In this document: piece by piece, positions 21,641 through 40,430 of the stretch
Numbering within the stretch: the stretch's first letter is position 1
Layout: each line of letters starts with the position of its first letter
Origin: an uncultured Chryseobacterium sp.
GTDB taxonomy: Bacteria; Bacteroidota; Bacteroidia; Flavobacteriales; Weeksellaceae
NCBI GenBank assembly: GCA_913778505.1
Contig: CAJYWD010000001.1
Span: 93,965 to 157,964, forward strand
Length of the DNA stretch: 64,000 nt
Direction of reading: 5' to 3'
Program-made: the position numbers and the translations under genes
Notes under the pieces: generated by a model
The model's database searches: none
Told to the model about the DNA's origin: nothing
What the model saw: the letters and a program-made list of their open reading frames with translations, nothing else

Positions 21641-21711
21641 TAAATTGATTTTGAAATGTTCTTGATATTAATTTTATACTGAATGCTCGATTAATTGAGA
21701 AAACCAGTTTC

Positions 21712-21850
21712 TTGCGCAGCGCGTGAGGGATGGCAGTGGAAATCCTTTTTTGCTGATACTAAGTGTCCTTTTTGCTGATTAATGTGGATGCAAAAAAGAT
21801 TGAAACGGACAGCCCGGCCCGGGCTGCTGGATGAGCGCCGGCGAGGGACA
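21712..21850. repeat. GC-rich structured intergenic repeat upstream of ssrA
   Basis: In contrast to its AT-rich surroundings it contains AATCCTTTTTTGC (21741-21753) inverted at 21790-21801 with one base missing, and a palindrome AGCCCGGCCCGGGCT (21811-21825). I recognise the general type (GGCAGTGGAAATCC...GATTGAAACGG) as a repeat seen in flavobacterial spacers. Function unknown. Confidence 0.45.
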
Positions 21851-21924: not shown

Positions 21925-22324
21925 GGGGTTGACTGGTTTCGACAGCAAGACCAATGGGTAAGTAAGCATGCAGAGAACCGTAGCGCGATCTCTTAAATCC
22001 CTTGCTACAACATTTTAACTGGCAACGAAGAGTTCGCTCTTGCAGCTTAATAATCGAAGTTTAGTAGATTCAAGCGTTTCCCGAAGATTTCAGTAAGGAA
22101 GCAAGATGTCTCACCAATGTTCTGTTCTGCGACGTTGGATCCTGGGATATAGGAATGCGGAAATAAGGTCTTGAAGGCTTCGGTCAAGATTCGAAAATTT
22201 TAGAAGCTAAGGTTTAGGTTGGGTGTTTGCTCTCTGCCCGGACTCGAAAATCAATAGCGAAATAAGCATGTAGAAAGCTTGCGTATTGCTTGTTTGGACG
22301 AGGGTTCGAATCCCTCCAACTCCA
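21925..22324 (+). ncRNA. ssrA: transfer-messenger RNA (tmRNA)
   Basis: The 5' GGGGTTG pairs with 3' CAACTCC (22318-22323) and includes the G3-U70 pair read by alanyl-tRNA synthetase. The T-loop GGTTCGAATCC (22303-22313) is intact and A22324 is the discriminator; CCA is not encoded. The tag frame starts at GGC 22021 and encodes GNEEFALAA, followed by a double TAA (22048-22053). The tag is added to proteins on stalled ribosomes and marks them for degradation. The 3' end is the insertion point of the mobile element, which leaves the RNA intact. Confidence 0.96.
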
Positions 22325-22325
22325 C
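22313..22325. repeat. attL: left 13-bp direct repeat of the integrated element
   Basis: CCTCCAACTCCAC, the acceptor end of ssrA, is repeated exactly at 40418-40430 beyond the integrase gene. A looser match extends 11 nt to the left (GGTTC....). Insertion into the 3' end of a tRNA-like gene by a tyrosine recombinase, which restores the gene, is well known. Confidence 0.85.
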
Positions 22326-22763: not shown

Positions 22764-25678
22764 TTATGAAAACCGATATTTAGCTTCTCTCTGTTTAAAA
22801 GCAACTTTACCACCTTCTACTATGTCTGCCACGTGTTCTCTAATACCCATAGATAAAAGTATGTTTTTATTACCATTCTTTGCGAATGAATTTTCAAGAG
22901 CACCATTAACATAATCAAATCTATATTCAAAATCTATTTCATTTGGGTTTTGACCATACTGGTGCGAAATGATTATATTTTCTGCATCGGCGTTTACAAC
23001 TATATTTGGATTATGAGTTACTAAAATAATTTGACGTTCTAATTTCTTTATTTTTAAATACTCAACTAATTCTTTAGTAATTGATCTATTGTCTAGATTG
23101 TCTTCTGGCTGGTCAATTAGAATAGGAGCGTTAGATTTGCTCAATCCAATTATAAGCTTTAAAATAATAAAACTAGCCTTTCCAGTAGACATTTTATATA
23201 GAGTGTCGTTATTTGAAGATACTTCCCAATAATCATAAAAGTAATCATTTAATAAGTCTTTATAGCTTGTTGAGGGCTTGTTTGTTTTCTTAGCACATAA
23301 TTATTGGTGACGACTTTCTTAAATATCTCCTCTATGTCTATTATATGTGATTCAAAATTTAAATTACTTGAATTATCTAGTTTGAAGACACCAAATGCAT
23401 CGTAAGATTTAGATGTTGAATTGCTTATCCCAATAAATATTTCGTTAAACTTATTGTAGTTAAATTTCACAACACCCTTAATTTGAAGATTTTCGTCCTC
23501 AAGAGTATTAATCCTCGATTCAAGTTTATTTATAATGGAAATGTATTCATCAAAAGTTTTTCTATACAGGTCGAATATTTTGTTGAATTGATTTTCTAAA
23601 CCTTCTTCTTTTAATTTAATTTCTTTTTCAATATTAATTATATTATTCAGTTTCTTTTCGTCTTCTTGTTGAGAAGTTTGAATTGAATTTATCTTATTAC
23701 TAATCTCAATTTTTAAATTAAAAGGTTTTAACTTCTCTGAGTTTTCCGATAAACCTCTCGTTATTCCTGATAATTTTGTTCTAAAAATACTATCATTAAC
23801 TAATTGATTTTGCTCATTGAGTAAAACTTCATTGTCAACTTCCAGAAGTTTATTTCGTAAAATTTGAATAATTGAATATTTAGCATTGTAAAAATCTTTT
23901 ATTTCTGGTTCATTTAAAGAGTTGATGAACAGTTCGTTTTTTGAAAGTAACTCATTGACAGTTGAAAGTAACTCTGAATTGTAATTACGTGTTTTTCTCC
24001 AGTCATCTTTTATATTAGCCTCTTGCACTTTTAGTGCTTTGTCACTTTCTTTTAATTGATCAAATGATTTATTTTCTTCGTCATCAAATCCAGCTTCCTT
24101 TTTCAATAGATCAATAGCATTAGCACTATTAGAGATACTCTGTTGGAGTGCATCTTTATTACCTATCTTAATTAATTTCTCTCTTAATTCTTTAATGTCA
24201 TCTATAATACTAAAGTAGTTATTTATAAGGCTTTCTCTAAGCTTATCATTTTGTTTGACATTACTTAAAAACTGAGAATATTCTTTATCTGATTCAGAAT
24301 CTTCTAGAATCAGTTCTCTAACTAATTTATTTAATTCATTATTTCTTTTAAACTTTTTCTCCGCTAATTCTGATAAATAATTTTGAGGAATATATTTGAT
24401 ATTAGGAAGAATGCTGGGAACATCAGTAGAACGTTTAATTGATTGTGTAGAACCAGATTTGAGTTTTACTATAAAATCAAAATCACCGCCAAACTCATAT
24501 TTGAACTCTTCTTTTCGTATGTCCGGATTATAGGATTTTAAAAGACTATGTTCACTGTTATCTTGAAATAAAGTTCTTGCAATATTATATAATAAAATAG
24601 ATTTACCAGATGATTTACCGCCAATAATAACATTTAGATTGTCATTCAGAAATAGTGATTTATCAGTGAATAATTTATCAGAAGAAATAATTTTTATTTC
24701 TTCAATAATGTTTTTATCATCCTTGGCAAATGGTTCATCTTTAGATAAATGAACTCTTTGTCCTGCTTCAACAATAATTTGTCTTAGACCTTCAAAACAC
24801 ACATCAGCTTTAATCCAAGTTGAACGTTCTTCATTTTTAATGAACAATTCTTCAAAATTATGTGAATCACTTCCACCAATACAAGGTTTTATGGATTTAA
24901 ATTCTTTAATATAATCCTCTTTAGTGTCATTAAATAATCCTAAACCCCATTTAATTGTATTTGGATTTGTTGCAATTAAAATATCAGCTTTTTGAATTAA
25001 AAGTTTTCTAGTGTGGTGATCTTGACTATTCCAACTTAATTTACTTAAGTCTTCATCACAAGGTAATAAAATGAAATAATTATCTTTAAAGATACTTGAT
25101 TTATTATGTAGCAAGTTGGTGATTTGCTCATCATCAACGACAGCATTCATCATTCCAATTTCTAAATCTGATTTAGTTCTAAAATGTTGATGCTGTTCTT
25201 TCAGTTTACACCCGAGTGCTTCTAAGTTTCTAACTTTAAGTTTTCGTTTCTCATCGTGCCCCTGCGGATTACTTTCGTAGATAAAATCGAGCTCGTGAAG
25301 AAAATTTTCTTCAATATCCTCGATACTGACATTATTGCTAAATAAAATATGATAGTTAATTCTATTAGTTCCAACTAGTTTATTTAATCTAAACTCAACA
25401 TTAGGTAAAACTAGGATTTTGCTAATTTTATTAATCTCCTCATCAGTAAATAATTCTTTAAGTTTATTGTGGTTCTCTAAATATTCTGTTTTAAGTTTTT
25501 TATATCCATCAATTATAAAATAGTCTGTTATTCCAATTGAGATGATATTATTTTTTATAGCTCGTGTAAATAATTCCTTAACATAAACATCCCAATCATT
25601 ACCGAAGCCATTATTCAAAATCGAGAATGGTGTGTGAACGTGTAAATCCCACTTATTCCACTGAGAGCCTTTAATCAT
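22764..25678 (-). pseudogene. PHP-domain + SMC-like ATPase (TrlF/Ppl-like), broken by a frameshift
   Basis: Part 1 (25678-23249, 809 aa) has an N-terminal PHP phosphoesterase domain ('DLHVHTPFS' at 11-19, 'GITDY' at 49-53, 'GGSDSHNF' at 268-275), then Walker A 'GGKSSGKS' at 353-360 and a long coiled coil. Part 2 (from 23192 back to 22764) holds Walker B 'PILIDQPEDNLDN' and the H-loop 'VTHNP', but in another frame. The second frame is open upstream through 'YKDLLNDYFYDYWEVSSNN', so one protein has been split. Adding one A to the A4 run at 23285-23288 would fuse them. The family is linked to phage defence. As it stands both halves of the ATPase are separated, so function is probably lost unless this is a base-calling error. 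Confidence 0.85.
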
Positions 25679-26002: not shown

Positions 26003-26284
26003 TCAGGATTTTTTACTTTTAATTTCTTTAATATCATATTTCTTATCTCTGATAGGTTCATCAGGAAAAAAATCCTTGATGGAGCACGCTAATGCAATTG
26101 CAATTAGATTTAGATGGATTAAATTATATTTTGCTTTTTTGGATGGAGCTTCTATCTGTGAAATAAATCCAATATTCTTCCCAATAGAAAGTGAGAGCTC
26201 CTCTTGTGTGATACTCTTTGATTCTCTTATTTCTTTAACACGTTTTATAACATATCTTTCTATTTCTTCTAATGATTCATTCAT
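26003..26284 (-). CDS. XRE-family helix-turn-helix regulator
   Basis: 93 aa. The HTH occupies about residues 12-70: 'VKEIRESKSITQEELSLSIG', 'IGFISQIEAPSKKAKYNLIH', 'LIAIALACSIKDFFPDEPI'. The last 20 residues are basic. It is divergent from the sigma/dCas12f operon, and a perfect palindrome (26320-26333) sits 36 nt upstream of its start, a natural operator for self-control and perhaps for control of the operon. Confidence 0.85.
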   Translation of the reverse strand: MNESLEEIERYVIKRVKEIRESKSITQEELSLSIGKNIGFISQIEAPSKKAKYNLIHLNLIAIALACSIKDFFPDEPIRDKKYDIKEIKSKKS

Positions 26285-26355: not shown

Positions 26356-26387
26356 TTTGTAAAATAAGTTATTGAAATGTAACTTTG
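26356..26387 (+). promoter_or_regulatory. promoter of the structured RNA / sigma / dCas12f unit
   Basis: TTTG at 26356-26359 and TAACTTTG at 26380-26387 are separated by 20 nt, matching the Bacteroidota sigma-A consensus TTTG-N(19-20)-TAnnTTTG. Transcription should start near 26394, about 270 nt before the sigma gene and 34 nt before the structured RNA. Confidence 0.75.
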
Positions 26388-26427
26388 CGATACTTCAAAG
26401 AAATATAGAAGCTATTGCTTAGAATCT

Positions 26428-26592
26428 CGAACTGAAAACTGGTAATTTTTAATATGCGAGAGGATAAGTAAAGTAGCTCACGACCTAGGCGTGAGCTCAC
26501 TTATCTGCATATAAGGTATACCAGTGTCCCAGTTCGGATATGTTGAGTTTCACGCTATTTGTTTGGGGTAAGGTGAAGTGAGATAGTGCATA
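26428..26592 (+). ncRNA. structured RNA candidate upstream of sigma/dCas12f (guide-RNA scaffold or leader)
   Basis: Five nested, fully complementary segments form one long rod: CGAACTG 26428-26434 with 26530-26536; ACTGGTA 26438-26444 with 26519-26525; ATATGC 26452-26457 with 26507-26512; GATAAGT 26463-26469 with 26499-26505; AGCTCACG 26475-26482 with 26490-26497 (loop ACCTAGG). A second domain can pair TTTCAC (26548-26553) with GTGAAG (26573-26578), or CGCTATTT with AGATAGTG. A stem of the type CUUCAC/GUGAAG followed by a UGCAU is also found in Cas12f tracrRNA. Whether this is the guide RNA scaffold or only an operon leader cannot be decided by eye. Confidence 0.7.
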
Positions 26593-26664: not shown

Positions 26665-27480
26665 ATGAAAAGAACAAAATCCTTGCCTCGAAAGCTCACC
26701 GATCATCAGTTATATGAACTGCTGAAAAAGGGCAATCCAGCCTCATTAGAACATATTCATTTTCGATACAAAAGACTTCTTTTCTGGATTGGAAAACAAA
26801 TGATTGAGGATGATTTTGTCGTGGAAACGCTAGTACAAGATACATTTCTTAAACTCTGGCTACACCGGGATTCTATTGAAACTCCAAATCATATTCTTGG
26901 CTTTTTACGATTCGTTCTGAAAAGAGACTGCATAACGTATTTCAATACTCCAAAAAATAAATTCGCTCGCTTAACGGCTTCACTTGAAAGTTTTGAGAAC
27001 TATCAGTATTATCTTGTCGGATATGATCCTCTGCAAGACAAAGAATGTCTGCTTCAGCAGGAGTTCGATCAAAAAGATTTTGATGAAGTCAATAGGGTCT
27101 TAAAGGTGATAAATCCCAAAAGAAAGCATCTGATTGAGCTATGCCTTCAGTATGGCTTCCGATACAAACCAATTGCAGAAGCAATGGGAAGCAGTGTAAA
27201 AGATATTAGCAATGAGGTAACTAAGGCAATAGATGACCTAAGGCAAATCTTAAAGTTAAATACTAATGTAGACCTGCCTGTAAAATATCAGAAGAACGAA
27301 GTTCACCAGAATGAACTCAGCAGTCAACAAATTGAAATTATGAGCAGAAGATTTGAACAAAAATCTTCATTTGCAGTCATTGCAAGAGAATTAAAAATTT
27401 CTGAAAAAGAAGTTCATCAGGATTTTCTTTTTGCCTATCAATATTTACAGAATCGAAATAACTCTGAAATAACTACCTGA
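26665..27480 (+). CDS. ECF-like sigma factor linked to nuclease-dead Cas12f
   Basis: 271 aa. A sigma-2-like region spans about 25-95 ('LVQDTFLKLWLHRDS', 'HILGFLRFVLKRDCITYF'), where ECF factors bind the RNA polymerase clamp and melt the -10. A sigma-4-like HTH spans about 150-197 ('HLIELCLQYGFRYKPIAEAM'). Unlike ordinary ECF factors (about 160-200 aa) it has a C-terminal extension with a further HTH-like unit at about 220-262 ('QQIEIMSRRF', 'FAVIARELKISEKEV'). No anti-sigma gene is nearby. Its stop is 1 nt before the dCas12f ATG, so the two products are made together. Likely role: recruited by the guide-bound Cas12f homologue to start transcription. Confidence 0.85.
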   Translation: MKRTKSLPRKLTDHQLYELLKKGNPASLEHIHFRYKRLLFWIGKQMIEDDFVVETLVQDTFLKLWLHRDSIETPNHILGFLRFVLKRDCITYFNTPKNKFARLTASLESFENYQYYLVGYDPLQDKECLLQQEFDQKDFDEVNRVLKVINPKRKHLIELCLQYGFRYKPIAEAMGSSVKDISNEVTKAIDDLRQILKLNTNVDLPVKYQKNEVHQNELSSQQIEIMSRRFEQKSSFAVIARELKISEKEVHQDFLFAYQYLQNRNNSEITT

Positions 27481-27481
27481 T

Positions 27482-28576
27482 ATGGAAAAATCAACAATTA
27501 CACTCACACGAAAAATTCAGTTGCTGACCGATGTTCCATCGGATCAAAAAAATGAAATGTGGGAAAAACTTTATCGGTATCAGAACCGCTGTTTCCGAGC
27601 AGCAAACTTAATAGCTTCCCATTTATATATTCAGGAAATGATCAAAGATTTCTTTTACCTCACCGAAGAAATACAATACAAGTTAGTTGATGAAAAAAAA
27701 GATCAGATGGGAATGTTTAACCGTTCGAAAACTGGCACTACAGCACGGATGGTGTTTGATCGTTTCAAAGGGGAAATTCCGACAGATATTCTGGGAAGCC
27801 TTAACAATACAATTCAATCAACTTTCTCTAAAAACAAAGCCGATTATTGGCAGGGAACAAAATCACTTAGAAATTATAAAAGAGACATTCCAATCCCACT
27901 TCCGGTTAAATGCATCAGCAAAATGAAATATGATCCTGATAAGAAAGCCTTTTGCTTCAATATGTTTGCGATTCCTGTCAAAACATACTTAGGAAAAGAT
28001 TATACTGATAAGCGAGTGATAATGGAACGCCTGTTAAAAGGAGACATAAAGCTATGCACCTCACAGATCCAACTGAAAGACAGGAAAATATTCTGGCTTG
28101 CAGTTTTTGAATTTGAAAAGGAGGAGCATATTTTAAAACCCGAAATCATTGCGGAAGCTTCCCTGTCCTTGGAACATCCTATCGTAGCAAAAGCCAACAA
28201 TGTGCGAATCAATATTGGCTCAAAAGAAGAGTTTCTGTATCGTAGGCTTGCAATTCAGGCAAGTCAAAAAAGGATTCAGGAGGGTATCGCCTATTGTCGT
28301 TCAGGAAATGGAGTAAAACGTAAACAGCAAGCATTGTACAAAACAGAAAATCTTGAAAGCAGATATGTAAGTCATCGGCTTCACCTTTATAGCCGAAAAC
28401 TTATAGATTTCTGCATCCGACAACAGGCGGGCACACTTGTTCTCAAAAATCAGGAAGACAAGATTGGGATTGCAAAAGAACAGGAATTTGTACTTCGTAA
28501 TTGGAGTTATTATGAATTGCAGACCAAAATAAAATACAAAGCTGAAAAAGCAGGGATTGAATTGATCATTGGATAA
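27482..28576 (+). CDS. nuclease-dead, C-terminally truncated Cas12f/TnpB homologue
   Basis: 364 aa. The N-terminal and recognition parts look like Cas12f ('ANLIASHLYIQEMIKDF', 'TKSLRNYKRDIPIP'). The RuvC region keeps the framework but not the chemistry. RuvC-I (normally GVDLGI) reads 'AEASLSLE' with Ser227 for Asp. RuvC-II (normally GTIxxEDL) reads 'GTLVLKNQ' with Lys322 for Glu. The bridge 'VLRNWSYYELQTKIKYKAEK' is intact, yet the protein ends at 'GIELIIG', before the CxxC zinc finger and the RuvC-III Asp. It can be expected to bind RNA and DNA without cutting. No TnpA or IS200/IS605 end is present. Nuclease-dead relatives (TldR repressors; sigma-linked dCas12f) are known RNA-guided transcription regulators. 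Confidence 0.9.
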   Translation: MEKSTITLTRKIQLLTDVPSDQKNEMWEKLYRYQNRCFRAANLIASHLYIQEMIKDFFYLTEEIQYKLVDEKKDQMGMFNRSKTGTTARMVFDRFKGEIPTDILGSLNNTIQSTFSKNKADYWQGTKSLRNYKRDIPIPLPVKCISKMKYDPDKKAFCFNMFAIPVKTYLGKDYTDKRVIMERLLKGDIKLCTSQIQLKDRKIFWLAVFEFEKEEHILKPEIIAEASLSLEHPIVAKANNVRINIGSKEEFLYRRLAIQASQKRIQEGIAYCRSGNGVKRKQQALYKTENLESRYVSHRLHLYSRKLIDFCIRQQAGTLVLKNQEDKIGIAKEQEFVLRNWSYYELQTKIKYKAEKAGIELIIG

Positions 28577-28584
28577 AAAATAAC

Positions 28585-28669
28585 GAGGGTGCTTGTACAC
28601 CCGCAGGGTGAGGTCTTGAACACTCACTAAATACTTAATTGTATATACAACGGCGTGGGTTCTTTTTTT
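28585..28669 (+). ncRNA. structured RNA candidate directly downstream of dCas12f (possible guide RNA 3' part)
   Basis: It begins 9 nt after the stop. Hairpin 1 is GGGTG/CACCC (28587-28591, 28598-28602) and hairpin 2 is GTGAG/CTCAC (28608-28612, 28623-28627). Next come a near-palindromic AATTGTATATACAAC (28637-28651), then GGCGTGGGTTC and a T7 tract (28663-28669). If AC-AAC ends a repeat-like scaffold, the guide would start at about 28652. Alternatively GAACACTCAC (28618-28627) pairs with GTGGGTTC to make a plain terminator. Confidence 0.5.
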
Positions 28670-32654: not shown

Positions 32655-33638
32655 TCAACGTTTCCTTTTAAAACGATTTGAATCTGTAAGTTCAAGTTTC
32701 TGATGTCTTAGTTGCAATTCGTCCGCTTCAGGGAATTTTTCAGATTGCTTTCCTGATTTATTAGCTGCATCATTTTTTATTCTATGTATCAAAAATTCGT
32801 TGAGATCTTTATGGTTGGAATAAATTCCGGAATGATCTTTGGCTTCCGGAAATGATTTTATGATCTGAGATTTACATTTAATTCCCGCATTATCGTTGTC
32901 GAGAAACAGATTAATATCAGAGTAGTTTTTCAAACATTCTATGGATTTGTTTAAAAGAGCAATGGAATTCATTACGAGAATTTCTCCTACGAAAGATCTC
33001 TGCATTTCTATAAAAGACAAGGCATCCATAAAGCCTTCAAAAACTGCTGCACTTTTGATATTTTTAACTTCAACACTTGATATGTCCTGTAAACCACAAT
33101 TGAGATTAATTATTGAAATATCCTTTTTCAACAATGACCCTTTATAAAAAGAATTACGAAGCTCAAAGCCTCCGGATAAATTTTTAAAACCAATGGCGTA
33201 GAGTTTCTTACTTCCGATGGTAAATCGTATTTCTTTTACATAATTATAGGTTTTAGGACTCAATCCACGCTCCTGTAAATATTTTTTCAGGTTTGGATTT
33301 TCTAAATTCAGCATTTCTGTAATTCTGTAATTTGGTTCCGACTTTTTGATCTGTGCTTGCTGATGAAAAGAAGAAAAATTTTGTTTTTGCGCCCAGTCCA
33401 GAACTCCATTGACCGAAGTGTTCAAATATTTTTTCATAAAGTCAGTATTTTTCCCGCCGACACCTTCTGAGTGAAGATACCAGGCATTAATTCTTTTATC
33501 CAATTTAAAAGAGGCTTGGGATTCGCTGGCAAAGGGGTTGAGATACCAAGCTTCTTTTTCATTTTGTTTCGTTGGAAGGTGTCCGAGAGAAAGGAGGACT
33601 TCTTCCAACGATATGCTGTTGAATTGTTTGCAGTTCAT
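32655..33638 (-). CDS. Toprim-domain primase-like protein
   Basis: 327 aa. A Toprim core is visible: Glu201 in 'AAVFEGFMDALSF' and Asp247/Asp249 in 'INLFLDNDNAGIK'. The N-terminal part ('LNPFASESQASFKLDKRINA', 'WYLHSEGVGGKNTDFMKKYL') has the CHC2-like layout but without the zinc Cys residues. Such proteins in Bacteroidota mobile elements are thought to prime replication of the excised or transferred strand. It is followed by the relaxase gene on the same strand. Confidence 0.85.
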   Translation of the reverse strand: MNCKQFNSISLEEVLLSLGHLPTKQNEKEAWYLNPFASESQASFKLDKRINAWYLHSEGVGGKNTDFMKKYLNTSVNGVLDWAQKQNFSSFHQQAQIKKSEPNYRITEMLNLENPNLKKYLQERGLSPKTYNYVKEIRFTIGSKKLYAIGFKNLSGGFELRNSFYKGSLLKKDISIINLNCGLQDISSVEVKNIKSAAVFEGFMDALSFIEMQRSFVGEILVMNSIALLNKSIECLKNYSDINLFLDNDNAGIKCKSQIIKSFPEAKDHSGIYSNHKDLNEFLIHRIKNDAANKSGKQSEKFPEADELQLRHQKLELTDSNRFKRKR

Positions 33639-33717: not shown

Positions 33718-33925
33718 ATTTTTGATGAATTGATGAGAAAACCATATAAGAAACTGAATAATAATAAATTGCACTCTCATCAAAGTCTCATCATCTCATC
33801 AAAGTAGAAATGTTCTTCTCATCATCCTCTCATCAAAAATCAAGGTTTAAAAATTTGATGAGGCTTTTGATGAGATTTAACTAATTGATTTTATTTTCAT
33901 TATCAATTAATTCATCATTTCATCA
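33718..33925. repeat. iteron-like TCATCA/TGATGA cluster, candidate replication origin
   Basis: Eleven copies of the hexamer TCATCA or its complement occur in about 200 nt (33723, 33731, 33777, 33788, 33796, 33819, 33830, 33856, 33868, 33912, 33920), many within CTCATCAAA. Both orientations are present. The cluster lies between the helicase and Toprim genes, and the last two copies are inside the end of the helicase gene. Confidence 0.5.
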
Positions 33926-35145
33926 AATTTTTGAAGAATAAAATTCCTTTCTATTGTAAAATATCGTCCTGTTTTATTCTGTTGGTAGAAGCTTCCGCCG
34001 TAATCGATTTCGTATTTGATGTAAGCCAATGAATTACTTTGAGGTTCAAGTTTCCAGTTTTCTTTCAGTATTTTCCGGACATCATTAACTGTCCAATATT
34101 GCTTGCTGAACATCTTACCAAGCATATTAAAAATATCCTGAGGAATACAATGGAGCTTGCTGTCCTCTGTACTTTCGAAAAACTCATATAAAAGTTCGAT
34201 GATCTTAGATTCCAGTTTATTGTTGTTCTTCCAAACCAATCTTTGTAGAGCCTTTGTCGTGATCTGGGATTCTGTGAACCACATCCTTGTCTGCTTATGA
34301 CTGTGAAAAGGTCTTTGAATTAAGTATCGAAGAAAATACGGGATCTCTTTGTTGAGATTTTTTAGGAATTCGGTGTTTTCGCTTTTGATCGATTTTACTT
34401 TGATGATCCAAAATCTGATCTCATTCTCATCAATCTGAATGAAGTTATCTTCATTATTGGAACAGAGAATAAATTTGCCAAAGAATTCAACTTCTTCACG
34501 GTCTTTTCCCTTTGCCTCTTTTTTGTCTTTGTCCGTCGTCGAAAGATATTTTAAGCGTTCAGTGATCTCTTTTTTATCAAAGAATACCTCATCAATCGCA
34601 ACAATCAGCATCGAAGTCCAATCTGAATTAAATTGACTGCTGAATGAGTCTCCTTTGATGTAGGTCATATTTAATCCAAAGATGGATTTCAGCCATTTGA
34701 TAAAAGTTGATTTTCCAGTAGCTCTTTCTTTACTTACCAAGCAAAGAATTGGAAGTATCTGCGTTGGATGTTCAAGCAATATCTTTATGTAATCTAAACC
34801 TAGCTCCAATTGCTCTCCGAAAATATGTTCCATAAATTTTAGTGAGAATGGAATTTTGTTTTCTAAATCTTCAGGACTTATACTTTCATTGATTGGTTGA
34901 TAAGGAATTTCATTGTACATATTGTAGAATCCGTCGATGATCTGCTTATAGTTAAGATGAGAAGGAATACAGCAGAAGCCATCATACTTTGAAACTTTTG
35001 AAACGTAGATTTTTCCGTGATCGCTAATAATTGTTTCACGGTTCCATCGTACCAAAATTGAAATTTTGTCACCGGAGATCAATGGTTTTGCGATAGTTTT
35101 ATAATAGGTTGTGCCTACTCTTAAGTATGGGATTTTTTCGCTCAT
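33907..35145 (-). CDS. D5/VirE-type primase-helicase of mobile element
   Basis: 412 aa. Walker A 'SKERATGKSTF' (138-148), Walker B 'MLIVAIDEVFF' (179-189) and sensor 'GKFILCSNNED' mark an SF3-like AAA+ helicase of the DUF5906 type. The N-terminal part ('RWNRETIISDHGKIY') binds the primase module in related proteins. It would unwind DNA at the element's origin. The adjacent HTH gene, iteron-like cluster and Toprim gene complete a replication module. Confidence 0.82.
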   Translation of the reverse strand: MSEKIPYLRVGTTYYKTIAKPLISGDKISILVRWNRETIISDHGKIYVSKVSKYDGFCCIPSHLNYKQIIDGFYNMYNEIPYQPINESISPEDLENKIPFSLKFMEHIFGEQLELGLDYIKILLEHPTQILPILCLVSKERATGKSTFIKWLKSIFGLNMTYIKGDSFSSQFNSDWTSMLIVAIDEVFFDKKEITERLKYLSTTDKDKKEAKGKDREEVEFFGKFILCSNNEDNFIQIDENEIRFWIIKVKSIKSENTEFLKNLNKEIPYFLRYLIQRPFHSHKQTRMWFTESQITTKALQRLVWKNNNKLESKIIELLYEFFESTEDSKLHCIPQDIFNMLGKMFSKQYWTVNDVRKILKENWKLEPQSNSLAYIKYEIDYGGSFYQQNKTGRYFTIERNFILQKFDEMMN

Positions 35146-36495: not shown

Positions 36496-38772
36496 TCACT
36501 GATCGATATCATCGAAGATACTCCTTGAGCTAATTAGTTGTTCATTTTCATCCCGTAAATCTAATTTTCTTTGTGGCATTTCTCGTTTTTCATAATCAGT
36601 CTCCTCAGCCCAGTCCTTCGCTTTTTTTCTTTCTTTCTCTAAAACTTGACATATAGAATCTTCCTCGTCAAACTCCTTAAGCAGAATATTTATCTTTTCA
36701 TAGAATTCTTCCATATGCTCTTCTGGCGTATAATCATCGTAATCGTTAAAAATATTCTCATATTTTTGTCTGACGTCAGATATTTGAGGTAATAAGTCAT
36801 TTCTAATCTTTTGTTTTAGCTCCTGTAATTCTTCAAAAGAAAAAACAGATTGCATATTTTCATCTCTAAGTACATAGAGATCATCACCCGAGACAGTATG
36901 ATGAGAAATGTATTCTACAAACTTTTTCCTGTACTTTTCAGGTAGCAATCCAAACCTATTTAATTTAACAACTGTATCTATTTCCTTAGAATAATAAAAG
37001 TGCATTGTTGGCTTAACAATAATATCAAAAATTTCAGGTTTTTCATTCACAAATAATTTCAGGAATTCTTTAGATGATCTTCTTGAGAGAAAGGATAGCA
37101 ACTTTTTTAAAGCGTCCCATTCAGATAAATATGATAGTTTGTACGACTTTGATTCTTTAAATGAAAGCATTCGCTCAAGTACTATATTATACATCTTTTT
37201 AGGAACGACAATTGTCTTTTCCAGACCAATATCTCCACACGTTATTTGCTCTAGTAATTTTTCAACATTAGTGCCCCTCAAATAGATTTCTAGTAACTCT
37301 GGGCTTTGGGTGATTATCCTCGCATAAGCGTCGCCGATTGTAGGATGTTTATATCGCCACACCATATTGTCATCGATGAATGTGTGCTGTACTAAGCTTC
37401 CGTTCATAGAATCAAATGCCTGAACACAATTACCCAAACTACTACCCATCCTAGCAAGAAGGTTAATTTCATTTTCCTCTAACTCTAATGGACTAATTAG
37501 AAGACCACTACTCATATATACAAGCCCTAAGGCAGCCTTACAGTCATTATCAAGACTCCTGATCACATCTTCTAAAAAGCTCTCCTGCTTCTCTACAAAA
37601 TTTTGTAGCGAATATTCATTTATTGAAAGATTATTAGTGAAGACGGAATCACCTAATCTCCTTGCAGTTTCAGGAATAAAACGATTATTTTGACAAACAC
37701 CTGTTAAATAGGGTTTGATTATTGTCCGAAATGATTTTGGTTGATTACCAAGTTTAATATGATTGTAAAGTATCTTTTGTTTCTCATCAAGGGTTAATTT
37801 ATGTAAATCAATAACAACTTGGCTTTCATTAAATAGCGGAAATGCACTTTCTTTTAAATCATTTCTTGCACGCTTGTAAATGTAATCACGAGATGTCATC
37901 ACGATTTTAACGCCCTGCTTTAGCATTGCTTTTATTTCTATCAAAATATGATTCCATCTATTAACAAGACCAGACTCATACTGTGTTACGCCAAACGCAT
38001 CATCAATCCAAAAAAATTGATTAGGATCAGTAGGATTCCAATGTTTAGTTACTAAATCGGGAGTGTCTAGCTTGAATGTAGTTTGTTGCCATTGATCAAC
38101 TGCCGCCATTGCTAAGAGAGAAGCAATCGTTGTTTTTCCTGCTGCCGCCTCTCCAATAATAAGAACAAATCCGTGTTCATTCATTGCTTCTGCAGCCTTA
38201 TAATATGATGATGTAATAACTATTTTTGAAAGATCATCTCTCATTGATGAAAGTAGCTCTCTAGCTTGTGAGTAAGCTCTTTCATCAAGAATCTGACTTA
38301 AATCTCCTAATCCATAAATTCTAGGCACTAATGCCCTTAGCCTATTACTCTCTGTTATTTGATTAGAAATCCAATCGTTTCCAAAGATTCTCCATTTTTT
38401 CACACCTAATTTTTCTAGCTTCTTTGAATAAACCAATTCAAATTGACCAGAAACTCCAGCGTTGGTCATAAGAATATAACAATCACATCGTCCTTCAGCA
38501 ACGAGCCTTTCAATTTTTACGAACTCATCAGTGAGGTCACTTAATTTTAAATTACTCTGTACTTTATTAGTAAACTTACATTGAATGATAAAATGTCCGT
38601 TCAGATCTTCATCATTTTTTTGTTTCCAAGTTCCTGAAAAAGCACCATCGATACCAGCATCATTTGTATCTAAAAAGTTAGTTACAGTTTGTCCTAAGAT
38701 TTCTCGTACAATTGTTAGACAGAGTTGTTGGAAGTCATGCCATCCTAACCGATGTAATTCATATTTTATCAT
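36496..38772 (-). CDS. Mrr-like nuclease fused to STAND NTPase (defence-type)
   Basis: 758 aa. An N-terminal PD-(D/E)xK restriction-endonuclease fold is visible: 'FLDTNDAGIDGAF' (Asp42) and 'HFIIQCKFT' (QxK, 64-66). A STAND-type NTPase follows with Walker A 'GEAAAGKTT' (207-215), Walker B 'FFWIDDAFG' (253-261) and 'KIVMTSRDYIYKRAR' (sensor/Arg). The C-terminal ~350 residues are helical, likely the sensor. Nuclease-STAND fusions are known immune proteins that cut DNA after recognising a phage product. It stands alone with 263 nt of gene-free DNA before the integrase. Confidence 0.85.
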   Translation of the reverse strand: MIKYELHRLGWHDFQQLCLTIVREILGQTVTNFLDTNDAGIDGAFSGTWKQKNDEDLNGHFIIQCKFTNKVQSNLKLSDLTDEFVKIERLVAEGRCDCYILMTNAGVSGQFELVYSKKLEKLGVKKWRIFGNDWISNQITESNRLRALVPRIYGLGDLSQILDERAYSQARELLSSMRDDLSKIVITSSYYKAAEAMNEHGFVLIIGEAAAGKTTIASLLAMAAVDQWQQTTFKLDTPDLVTKHWNPTDPNQFFWIDDAFGVTQYESGLVNRWNHILIEIKAMLKQGVKIVMTSRDYIYKRARNDLKESAFPLFNESQVVIDLHKLTLDEKQKILYNHIKLGNQPKSFRTIIKPYLTGVCQNNRFIPETARRLGDSVFTNNLSINEYSLQNFVEKQESFLEDVIRSLDNDCKAALGLVYMSSGLLISPLELEENEINLLARMGSSLGNCVQAFDSMNGSLVQHTFIDDNMVWRYKHPTIGDAYARIITQSPELLEIYLRGTNVEKLLEQITCGDIGLEKTIVVPKKMYNIVLERMLSFKESKSYKLSYLSEWDALKKLLSFLSRRSSKEFLKLFVNEKPEIFDIIVKPTMHFYYSKEIDTVVKLNRFGLLPEKYRKKFVEYISHHTVSGDDLYVLRDENMQSVFSFEELQELKQKIRNDLLPQISDVRQKYENIFNDYDDYTPEEHMEEFYEKINILLKEFDEEDSICQVLEKERKKAKDWAEETDYEKREMPQRKLDLRDENEQLISSRSIFDDIDQ

Positions 38773-39035: not shown

Positions 39036-40277
39036 CTACTTAAAAACCTCATTCATATAGTTGATCTTATCATCTTCACTTGGTCTGTAGTAAGCATTGA
39101 AGACTTCTAAACTGGTGTGACCAGTGTAACTCATAATTACTTTATCCGGAACTCGTTTGTTTTTCATTATCGTGATGAAACTTCTTCTAGCAGTATGTGA
39201 GGAAATTCTTGTCCAAAACTCAGCTTTTTGGTCTACCAACTCATCTCCATACTTCATAGTCTTCTTTATTTCATCAGTAAATTCCAGCTTTTTAAAAACC
39301 TCCTTGATATACTCATTCATTTTTTGATTTGTGATACTAGGCAGGTTATAATCATACTTTTCTAGTATTGATTTAGAAATACTGTTTAAAGGAATTGCTA
39401 AGTTTTTAGATTTACTTTTTAAATCGATAACTCGTATGAAATTACCATCAACATCACTTCTTGAGATCGTGCTGTAATTACCAAATCTCATTCCTGTAGT
39501 GCACCCAAAGACAAAAAGGTCACGTACCCTTTCCAATCTTTTATTATCATTAAAGTCATAATTGTATATTAGCTCAACTTGTTCGTAATTTAAAGCTATT
39601 TCATCTGTAGTGAATTTCGCAGGTTTTTTAAAAGTAATAAAATTGTTATTGTAAGTATATTTTTTGTTAAGAGCCCAAAGAAGAAAAGTTTTGAGCAGAC
39701 CGACATTTCTATGTAATGTATTTGCAGAATGCTTTTTTTCTTCAATACAATACTTTAAAAACCTATTGTAAAGTTTATCATCAAATTTTCCCAGAGTAAT
39801 CTTAACTTTACAATTGCTTTCAAAATCTTCGAGTAGATTCTTATTGCATTTGTAACGCTTTAAAGTAGAATTTGAAATTGAATTCCCTGTATAGTCATTT
39901 TCTTTCTCATCTAAAAACTCCTGATAAATTCTAAAGAAATCACTTTTAACAGTAATTTTTTTAAACTTTTCATCAAATCTTTGTTTAAGAATATCGACGG
40001 TAAGTTCTTCATTTATGTTCTTATATCGATTTACGATCTCTGTAAAGAAACTGCTGTATCGATCTAATTGCATTTTGACGCTTCGATGAATTTCCGCCTT
40101 TTTAGTCCTTCCGTTTAGGTCATTTGGTTGTCTACCTTCAAAATCCCATTCGCTTGGTTTTATTTTCTCGCCCGTAGAATAGATGAAATTCTTATTTTCA
40201 TTGTTGAAAAAAGAACGGAAATAAATCAAAGATTCCTTTGTACCATTGGGCTGCTTAAGTTTAAAAGTGTAGTTCAT
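39036..40277 (-). CDS. int: tyrosine site-specific integrase of the element
   Basis: 413 aa. An N-terminal arm-binding part (1-110) precedes a SAM-like core-binding domain (about 112-215) and a catalytic domain with Arg264 ('TTGMRFGNY'), His361-xx-Arg364 ('SSHTARRSF'), His387 ('GHTSLEVF') and the Tyr nucleophile at 396/397 ('NAYYRP'). It cuts and rejoins the att sites in ssrA. Its ATG (40275-40277) abuts the direct repeat at 40279-40298, so arm binding may also repress its own promoter. It lies 141 nt from attR, as usual. Confidence 0.92.
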   Translation of the reverse strand: MNYTFKLKQPNGTKESLIYFRSFFNNENKNFIYSTGEKIKPSEWDFEGRQPNDLNGRTKKAEIHRSVKMQLDRYSSFFTEIVNRYKNINEELTVDILKQRFDEKFKKITVKSDFFRIYQEFLDEKENDYTGNSISNSTLKRYKCNKNLLEDFESNCKVKITLGKFDDKLYNRFLKYCIEEKKHSANTLHRNVGLLKTFLLWALNKKYTYNNNFITFKKPAKFTTDEIALNYEQVELIYNYDFNDNKRLERVRDLFVFGCTTGMRFGNYSTISRSDVDGNFIRVIDLKSKSKNLAIPLNSISKSILEKYDYNLPSITNQKMNEYIKEVFKKLEFTDEIKKTMKYGDELVDQKAEFWTRISSHTARRSFITIMKNKRVPDKVIMSYTGHTSLEVFNAYYRPSEDDKINYMNEVFK

Positions 40278-40417: not shown

Positions 40418-40430
40418 CCTCCAACTCCAC
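40418..40430. repeat. attR: right 13-bp direct repeat
   Basis: CCTCCAACTCCAC, an exact copy of the ssrA 3' end at 22313-22325, preceded by a degenerate T-arm (GGTTCAAAAA). It marks the right end of the element. Confidence 0.85.

What the first reader, a model, noticed from the sequence alone, without database searches (positions are those of the whole stretch)
26665..28576. Sigma factor coupled to a nuclease-dead Cas12f: candidate RNA-guided transcription system
Seen: two plus-strand genes 1 nt apart. The second is Cas12f-like over its whole length, but RuvC-I Asp is Ser227, RuvC-II Glu is Lys322, and it ends before the zinc finger and RuvC-III, so three independent losses remove cutting. The first is an ECF-like sigma factor without an anti-sigma. 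Known: nuclease-dead TnpB relatives (TldR) repress genes by RNA guidance, and sigma-linked dCas12f in Bacteroidota has recently been reported to activate transcription from RNA-chosen sites. Inference: this pair does the same, and unusually it is cargo of a mobilizable element in ssrA.
Basis: partly seen in the sequence, partly recalled or inferred. Interest (0 to 1): 0.95.

Follow-up and report, generated by a model that had tools for sequence, protein, structure and literature searches.

The report
Mobile RNA-guided switch for nutrient importers
A mobile DNA element in a flavobacterium carries a cutting-dead CRISPR-type protein, a sigma factor and a small-RNA gene whose guide matches a conserved control element in front of the cell's own SusC/SusD importer genes, so the element would likely switch on host nutrient uptake by RNA guidance.

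Summary
Observation confirmed. The pair at 26665-28576 is a new member of the dCas12f-sigmaE RNA-guided transcription family: end-to-end match to PDB 9n9c 'Nuclease-deactivated Cas12f' (E 5e-160) and to 9n9q 'RpoE' (E 5e-77). New here: (1) a guide-RNA gene directly downstream (guide GGCGTGGGTTC, 28652-28662); GGCGTGGG opens 55 of 60 guides found in the window and its relatives. (2) The sigma operon starts with a structured leader RNA, unknown to Rfam, one hairpin arm of which ('b') equals the guide up to wobbles. (3) The same leader stands alone elsewhere, 36 of 59 examined copies before SusC; this genome's copy, on another contig, precedes SusC-SusD-S9 peptidase. (4) Guides of nine genomes match their SusCD leaders at positions 1-8 without a non-wobble mismatch. 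(5) A relative with an unrelated guide again matches sites before SusC (15 nt) and before its own sigma gene (11 nt). The carrier is an 18-kb mobilizable element in ssrA; 25 of 61 loci have mobilisation genes nearby, so this is common, not unusual. Most likely: RNA-guided activation in trans of SusCD, plus self-activation where the leader is present. Guide binding, DNA binding, start site and activation are inferred. New variant of a known kind.

The parts
22313..22325 (+). left copy of the 13-bp direct repeat CCTCCAACTCCAC at the 3' end of ssrA (attachment site)
40418..40430 (+). right copy of the 13-bp direct repeat; the element spans about 22.3-40.4 kb
39036..40277 (-). tyrosine integrase of the element
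   Evidence: Phage_integrase 46.1 bits
31220..32389 (-). relaxase-like mobilisation gene
   Evidence: PF03432 E 0.0065, below cut-off; family 4
32655..33638 (-). Toprim primase-like gene
33907..35145 (-). DUF5906/VirE-like gene
26003..26284 (-). divergent small HTH gene next to the leader
   Evidence: HTH_19 26.5 bits, below cut-off 30.2
26356..26387 (+). promoter-like boxes TTTG (26356-26359) and TAACTTTG (26380-26387), 20 nt apart; Bacteroidetes-type consensus is recalled
   Evidence: sequence; conserved
26407..26560 (+). structured leader RNA (model R2 match 26407-26536 plus arm c)
26476..26482 (+). leader arm a, GCTCACG
26488..26498 (+). leader arm b, GGCGTGAGCTC; predicted self-target (two wobbles to the guide over 11 nt)
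26545..26556 (+). leader arm c, GAGTTTCACGCT, can pair with b
26665..27480 (+). ECF-type sigma factor gene
27482..28576 (+). dCas12f gene (nuclease-dead)
28585..28651 (+). guide-RNA scaffold, ends GTATATACAAC
28652..28662 (+). guide GGCGTGGGTTC, followed by a T-run 28663-28669

Best explanation
This is a mobile-element-borne dCas12f-sigma system with its own guide-RNA gene, likely to work by bringing RNA polymerase to a conserved leader element and so to switch on, in trans, chromosomal SusC/SusD importer operons and its own operon. Shown here: the two genes, the guide-RNA gene, the leader before sigma, the second leader copy before SusC-SusD-S9 peptidase on another contig, and the match of the guide to arm b of both leaders (identities and wobbles over 11 nt). 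Inferred: dCas12f binds the RNA and opens the DNA at arm b (target-adjacent base G, the first G of GGCG); sigma on dCas12f recruits RNA polymerase; transcription starts a fixed distance downstream (about 46 bp, recalled for the homologous system), that is, downstream of b. Such transcripts would lack b, could not form the b:c terminator-like hairpin, and would run on into SusCD. The G/U-rich guide would let one RNA pair with leaders that differ slightly.
For: Full-length homology to dCas12f and RpoE of PDB 9n9c/9n9q. Guide-RNA-like stretch 3' of dCas12f in the 60 listed loci (by eye; L005 breaks off before the guide), GGCGTGGG in 55 of 60 found by pattern. Own genome: one dCas12f, one guide RNA, two leaders; among 21 GGCGTGGGY sites only the guide-RNA gene itself and the SusCD leader read GGCGTGGGYTC. 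All 23 dCas12f genomes of 395 have the leader model, against 67 of 372 others. 22 guide/SusCD-leader pairs of 9 genomes, b located by alignment: positions 1-8 have 170 identities, 6 wobbles, no other; over 15 nt the best guide has no non-wobble mismatch for 11 of 16 leaders. Relative G350, which has no leader at its sigma gene, has an unrelated guide that matches 15 nt upstream of SusC and 11 nt upstream of its own sigma gene (0 of 300 shuffles). L223: guide GCGTGGGCTC plus 6 more of the next 7 letters, with target-adjacent G.
Against: No binding, start-site or expression data. The leader and its b arm are conserved in genomes without dCas12f, so they serve something else too. 10 of 57 sigma upstream regions lack the leader though the guide is kept, and in 6 of 43 aligned pairs no recognisable b is present. 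The window's own guide has an exact match of only 8 nt to its SusCD leader; 28 of 300 shuffles do as well. Several guides have no convincing target in the stretches I held (G374 guides 1, 2, 4; G403 guide 1; both of G326; two of G375; G002). Same-genome matching beats permutation at 0.0135 for 13 genomes but 0.125 for the 9 with SusCD-linked leaders. The two sites of G374 guide 3 lie only 49 and 46 bp before the SusC start codon, too close for a start 46 bp downstream. The two G350 sites have A and G as adjacent base, so G is not universal. Both guides that I interpret copy hairpin arms, which the RNA rival also predicts.
Confidence: 0.57

Rival explanations
1. The guide acts on RNA: as a copy of arm b it pairs with arm c of the nascent leader RNA and prevents the b:c terminator, an antitermination in trans, with dCas12f as carrier of the RNA.
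For: The guide equals arm b up to wobbles, and b pairs with c; the guides of G350 and G374 guide 3 also lie in hairpin arms.
Against: The solved homologue is named as a dCas12f with RpoE and is recalled to act on DNA with RNA polymerase; the L223 guide continues without gaps along the DNA 3' of b, whereas the reverse complement of c needs gaps (read by eye).
Confidence: 0.13
2. The complex represses: dCas12f sits in the leader and blocks transcription from the upstream promoter, as the TnpB-like repressors TldR do, and sigma serves another purpose.
For: Arm b lies downstream of the promoter-like boxes, inside the leader.
Against: A sigma factor is conserved upstream of dCas12f in 56 of 60 loci, which repression would not need.
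Confidence: 0.13
3. The system is a guide-directed activator, but its real targets are not the leaders; the likeness between guide and arm b is inherited from a shared origin or a coincidence.
For: Leaders are conserved without dCas12f; some guides have no leader match; 10 of 57 sigma operons have no leader.
Against: The unrelated guide of G350 again matches upstream of SusC and of its own sigma gene; guides of nine genomes match SusCD leaders at positions 1-8 without a non-wobble mismatch.
Confidence: 0.15
4. A decayed transposon or CRISPR nuclease gene without function.
For: Catalytic residues and C terminus are missing.
Against: dN/dS 0.041-0.086 in 14 comparisons; no D227 or E322 in the aligned relatives; conserved sigma gene and guide RNA.
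Confidence: 0.02

Closest known systems
dCas12f-sigmaE RNA-guided transcription system (PDB 9n9c, 9n9m, 9n9o, 9n9q; recalled as Flagellimonas taeanensis, 2025 preprints of the Sternberg and Chang laboratories, not held here)
   Same: Full-length homologous dCas12f and sigma, the same missing nuclease parts; guide-RNA gene next to dCas12f.
   Different: Carried by mobilizable elements; near-invariant short G/U-rich guide that copies an arm of a leader RNA; predicted targets in trans. Whether the preprints report such targets I could not check.
TldR, nuclease-dead TnpB-like repressors (passages of PMC13418256)
   Same: Nuclease-dead relatives of RNA-guided nucleases that act as RNA-guided transcription factors on host genes; in that paper carried by a prophage.
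   Different: TldR represses flagellin genes; here a sigma factor is coupled and activation is predicted.
Cas12f nucleases (PDB 9nzo and others)
   Same: Homologous over residues 85-361.
   Different: Catalytic Asp and Glu and the C-terminal part are absent.
ECF sigma/anti-sigma control of SusC/SusD operons (recalled)
   Same: An ECF-type sigma predicted to serve SusC/SusD genes.
   Different: No anti-sigma gene beside it; targeting predicted to be by RNA.

Membership tests
dCas12f-sigmaE RNA-guided transcription system | dCas12f homologous over its whole length, RuvC Asp and Glu and C-terminal part absent | tested here: met
dCas12f-sigmaE RNA-guided transcription system | adjacent homologous sigma factor | tested here: met
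   (9n9q chain C, E 5e-77); conserved in 56 of 60 loci
dCas12f-sigmaE RNA-guided transcription system | guide RNA encoded next to dCas12f | tested here: met
   (gene-like conservation; no RNA data)
dCas12f-sigmaE RNA-guided transcription system | target with adjacent 5'-G (recalled) | tested here: inconclusive
   G if the first G of GGCG is read as the adjacent base; A and G at the two G350 sites
dCas12f-sigmaE RNA-guided transcription system | dCas12f, RNA and sigma form one complex with RNA polymerase, start site at fixed distance | not testable with these tools
   inferred from homology
TldR repressors | represses its target | not testable with these tools
   no expression data
Cas12f nuclease | RuvC Asp and Glu | tested here: not met
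   Ser227, Lys322
CRISPR-Cas type V-F | CRISPR array with repeats and spacers | not tested
   no repeat search was run; the own genome has one guide-RNA gene, relatives have tandem ones
ECF sigma/anti-sigma control of SusCD | adjacent anti-sigma gene | tested here: not met
   none among the neighbouring ORFs examined
known Rfam family (leader and guide RNA) | match at gathering score | tested here: not met
   (only weak hits, such as Flavo-1 17.4 bits, E 0.7)

The most novel reading that the evidence does not exclude
A horizontally mobile RNA-guided sigma factor runs a host regulon by bypassing an attenuator: one G/U-rich, wobble-tolerant guide recognises the first arm of a terminator-like hairpin in a new leader-RNA family and restarts transcription just downstream of it, so that host SusC/SusD importers (in this genome with an S9 peptidase) and the switch itself are turned on together wherever the element lands.
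Probability: 0.33. Interest if true: 0.92.

Novelty: new variant of a known kind. Interest (0 to 1): 0.7.

Why it matters
It offers a natural RNA-guided activator with a predicted guide, predicted targets in the same genome and a predicted output, so that the question what these systems are for becomes directly testable. If true, mobile elements control host nutrient uptake with an RNA-guided sigma factor, a single wobble-tolerant guide serves several targets, and the leader RNA (model hits in 90 of 395 sampled genomes of the order; no Rfam family) is a new regulatory RNA in front of SusCD genes.

Tried and rejected
Decayed gene: rejected by dN/dS and conservation. Leader as 6S RNA: the 6S-Flavo model hits another contig, below its cut-off. 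Leader as a known Rfam family: nothing at gathering score in the window except tmRNA and Flavo-1 elsewhere; only weak hits at relaxed thresholds or none. Guide conservation explained by scaffold folding: RNAalifold pairs part of the guide with the scaffold, but with little co-variation (3 of 24 pairs in the whole model) and relatives with other guides keep the scaffold. Plasmid carriage: only matches under 60% identity, in 13 plasmid records. A SusCD target beside the system: no SusC/SusD match in the window or the 60 loci, so action would be in trans. Literature: the held library gave no paper on this system or leader (listings only); two preprints looked up by recalled DOI are not held.

Mended while checking: one search located arm b with a pattern that fixes positions 1-6 and 8 and allows only A or G at 7, so its '32 of 33 differences are wobbles' is biased; only positions 9-11 are free there (25 of 26). 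locates b by alignment instead. Searches mixed SusCD-linked and other leaders; one search showed that those of G122 and G332 precede other genes, those of G206 end with the contig and that of G375 precedes a redoxin-like gene; one search counts SusCD-linked ones only. Distances are extrapolated from BLAST; searches give start codons. My odds were lowered a little for this.

Full report
Observation. The two genes are as described: sigma 26665-27480 and dCas12f 27482-28576, one base apart. By sequence the dCas12f matches PDB 9n9c 'Nuclease-deactivated Cas12f' end to end (535.6 bits) and the sigma matches chain C of 9n9q, 'RpoE' (262 bits). PADLOC's Cas12f model scores 178 bits. Ser227 and Lys322 stand where 9nzo has Asp and Glu. 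Of 60 loci with a relative, 56 have the sigma gene upstream; L052 and L059 begin at a contig end and L060 and L061 are partial. In the aligned rows residue 227 is never Asp and residue 322 never Glu, and dN/dS is 0.041-0.086 in 14 comparisons. This is a maintained, non-cutting protein.

Carrier. tmRNA lies at 21925-22325. The repeat CCTCCAACTCCAC at its 3' end recurs at 40418-40430, next to a tyrosine integrase. In between lie a relaxase-like gene (below Pfam's cut-off), Toprim and DUF5906 genes, and an nSTAND3 gene that matches the candidate defence model PDC-S73. Of 61 loci (60 plus the window), 25 have one of five mobilisation or recombinase families within about 6 kb, 22 a relaxase family, 53 one of five small HTH families (families made by clustering, a few representatives checked with Pfam). 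Many loci are cut by contig ends, so 25 is a lower bound. No SusC/SusD match lies in the window or the 60 loci.

Guide RNA. Directly 3' of dCas12f the 60 listed loci carry a conserved stretch that ends in GTATATACAAC or close to it, followed by a short guide and usually a T-run, after which similarity stops (by eye; L005 breaks off before the guide). A pattern found 60 such RNAs in the window and the loci, 55 with GGCGTGGG; the others read GGGGCGG (2), TGAGCGG, AGAGCGC and GCGTGAG. The own genome has one. Some relatives have two to four in tandem with different guides.

Leader. Upstream of sigma lies a conserved stretch, present by profile in 47 of 57 sigma upstream regions, in 42 of them near full length at the usual place. 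It folds strongly (z -6.7 for the window's copy), and 12 of 36 pairs show changes on both sides in 14 aligned copies. Arm a (GCTCACG or GCCCACG) pairs with arm b (GGCGTGGGC); a third arm c (GAGTTCCACGCC and the like) stands before a T-run. b and c of the same leader pair better than b and c of different leaders (-24.3 against -22.3 kcal/mol), and a:b likewise (-13.95 against -13.56); none of 10000 permutations reached either (69 distinct pairs from the 81 leaders that my pattern could parse, of 104). The sequences are related, so this overstates independence. From b to c the RNA alone folds as a hairpin of -29.9 (own SusCD copy) and -22.7 kcal/mol (window), each followed by T-rich sequence. 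Hence an attenuator-like design, inferred.

Leaders elsewhere. Model R2 hits 30 of 59 genomes, the guide-RNA model R1 12 of 59. Order-wide R2 hits 90 of 395, including all 23 with dCas12f, against 67 of the other 372 (G379 only at E 8e-5). Phylogeny is not corrected for, and many dCas12f genomes count partly through the sigma operon's own leader; by the places listed, G326 has no other, and G379 I could not place. From the list I fetched 40 copies not beside a guide RNA; 38 were found again by profile, 29 followed by the SusC family and 26 also by the SusD family. A second set of 21 gave 7 with SusC and SusD, 2 with a TonB-type protein further on (by eye), 2 cut by a contig end and 10 others. 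So 36 of 59 precede SusC. The own-genome copy has arm b 529 bp upstream of SusC, with SusD and an S9 peptidase behind and an HTH gene divergent.

Guide and target. For SusCD-linked leaders (9 genomes, 16 leaders, 22 guide/leader pairs; b located by alignment) positions 1-8 show 170 identities and 6 wobbles (guide G/protospacer A, or guide U/protospacer C) and nothing else; positions 9-11 show 45 identities, 15 wobbles, 4 reverse transitions and 2 others; position 13 is a wobble in 17, and position 16 a mismatch in 17. Over 15 nt the best guide has no non-wobble mismatch for 11 leaders, one for 4, two for 1. For 43 guide/own-sigma-leader pairs located by alignment there are 101 differences over 11 positions: 66 wobbles, 6 reverse transitions, 29 others; six of the leaders (L018, L039, L040, L045, L046, L055) have no recognisable b and four near-identical ones read GGCAAGGG. 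Four leaders had no guide found by the pattern and are left out. An earlier count with a biased pattern gave 32 wobbles in 33 differences and is not used. Same-genome guides fit better than permuted ones at 0.0135 for 13 genomes, 0.125 for the 9. In the window's genome the guide differs from the SusCD leader by one wobble over 12 positions and from its own leader by two over 11.

Other guides. L223 of another family has guide GCGTGGGCTC plus six of the next seven letters of the target, with G next to it; its SusCD leader L224 has the same site. G350 lacks the leader at its sigma gene; its guide AAAAGCCTTCCCGCG matches 15 nt starting 84 bp before the SusC start codon and 11 nt about 160 bp before its sigma gene (extrapolated). 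G403 guide 2 matches 12 nt of its own sigma leader. G374 guide 3 matches G|GCGTGAGCTT before two SusC genes, but only 49 and 46 bp before the start codons, and 13 nt on the other strand before its sigma gene. None of 300 shuffles reached these. Failures: G374 guides 1 and 2 (guide 4: 39 of 300 shuffles), G403 guide 1, both of G326, GGGGCGG and AGAGCGC of G375, G002; the window's own guide, counted by exact match only, 28 of 300. For G374 guide 2 a nine-letter likeness to the variant leader of L232 (GCGTGACAT) is visible, outside the stretch tested.

Mechanism. By homology the proteins bind guide RNA, DNA and RNA polymerase; a start site about 46 bp downstream of the target-adjacent base is recalled from a preprint and was not checked. 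In the leader this falls between b and c, so RNA-guided transcripts would escape the b:c hairpin. This step is inference.

Novelty. The kind is known from PDB entries and recalled preprints. In the held library I found nothing on the leader RNA family, the arm-copying guide or trans targeting from mobile elements. The preprints are not held, so part may be in them.

Noticed in passing
window 22764-23192 and 23249-25678 (-): Two neighbouring ORFs look like one PHP/SMC-type ATPase read in two pieces (GGKSSGKS in the larger, LIDQPEDNLDN in the smaller); no Pfam match for the larger.
   Followed up: no
window 36496-38772 (-): nSTAND3 NTPase with an Mrr-like stretch just below cut-off; matches the candidate defence model PDC-S73; cargo of the element.
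   Followed up: partly
window 21709-21823 (+): Flavo-1 RNA (Rfam RF01705, 55.7 bits) about 100 bp upstream of tmRNA.
   Followed up: no
L134, L141, L142, L144 and L257 downstream of the leader: A variant of the leader precedes response-regulator-like genes (in L257 a 159-aa ORF), with a small HTH gene of one family before it, not SusC.
   Followed up: no
L233, L234, L240, L241, L245 downstream of the leader: The leader precedes similar small ORFs of about 160-200 aa without SusC behind; related ORFs stand between leader and SusC in L133, L137, L162.
   Followed up: partly
L225, L226, L228, L231, L232 upstream of SusC or sigma: A second conserved hairpin (CCTTCCC..GGGAAGG core) close to the gene start; the guides of G350 and guide 3 of G374 fall in its arms.
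   Followed up: partly
L033 7106-7574, L038 7106-7518, L225, L227, L229, L230: Tandem guide-RNA genes with different guides, three each in L033, L038 and L225, four in L230, two each in L227 and L229.
   Followed up: partly
29 SusCD loci, and L082 1714-1974: A small divergent ORF, often of an HTH family, ends about 10-120 bp upstream of the leader, as in the sigma copies; its role is open.
   Followed up: no
L005 after 7092; L048 5185-5990: Broken copies: guide RNA interrupted before the guide in L005; sigma gene split into two frames in L048.
   Followed up: no
L263 14056-16745: GIY-YIG-like and DndB-like genes beside the HTH gene next to the SusCD leader of the own genome.
   Followed up: no
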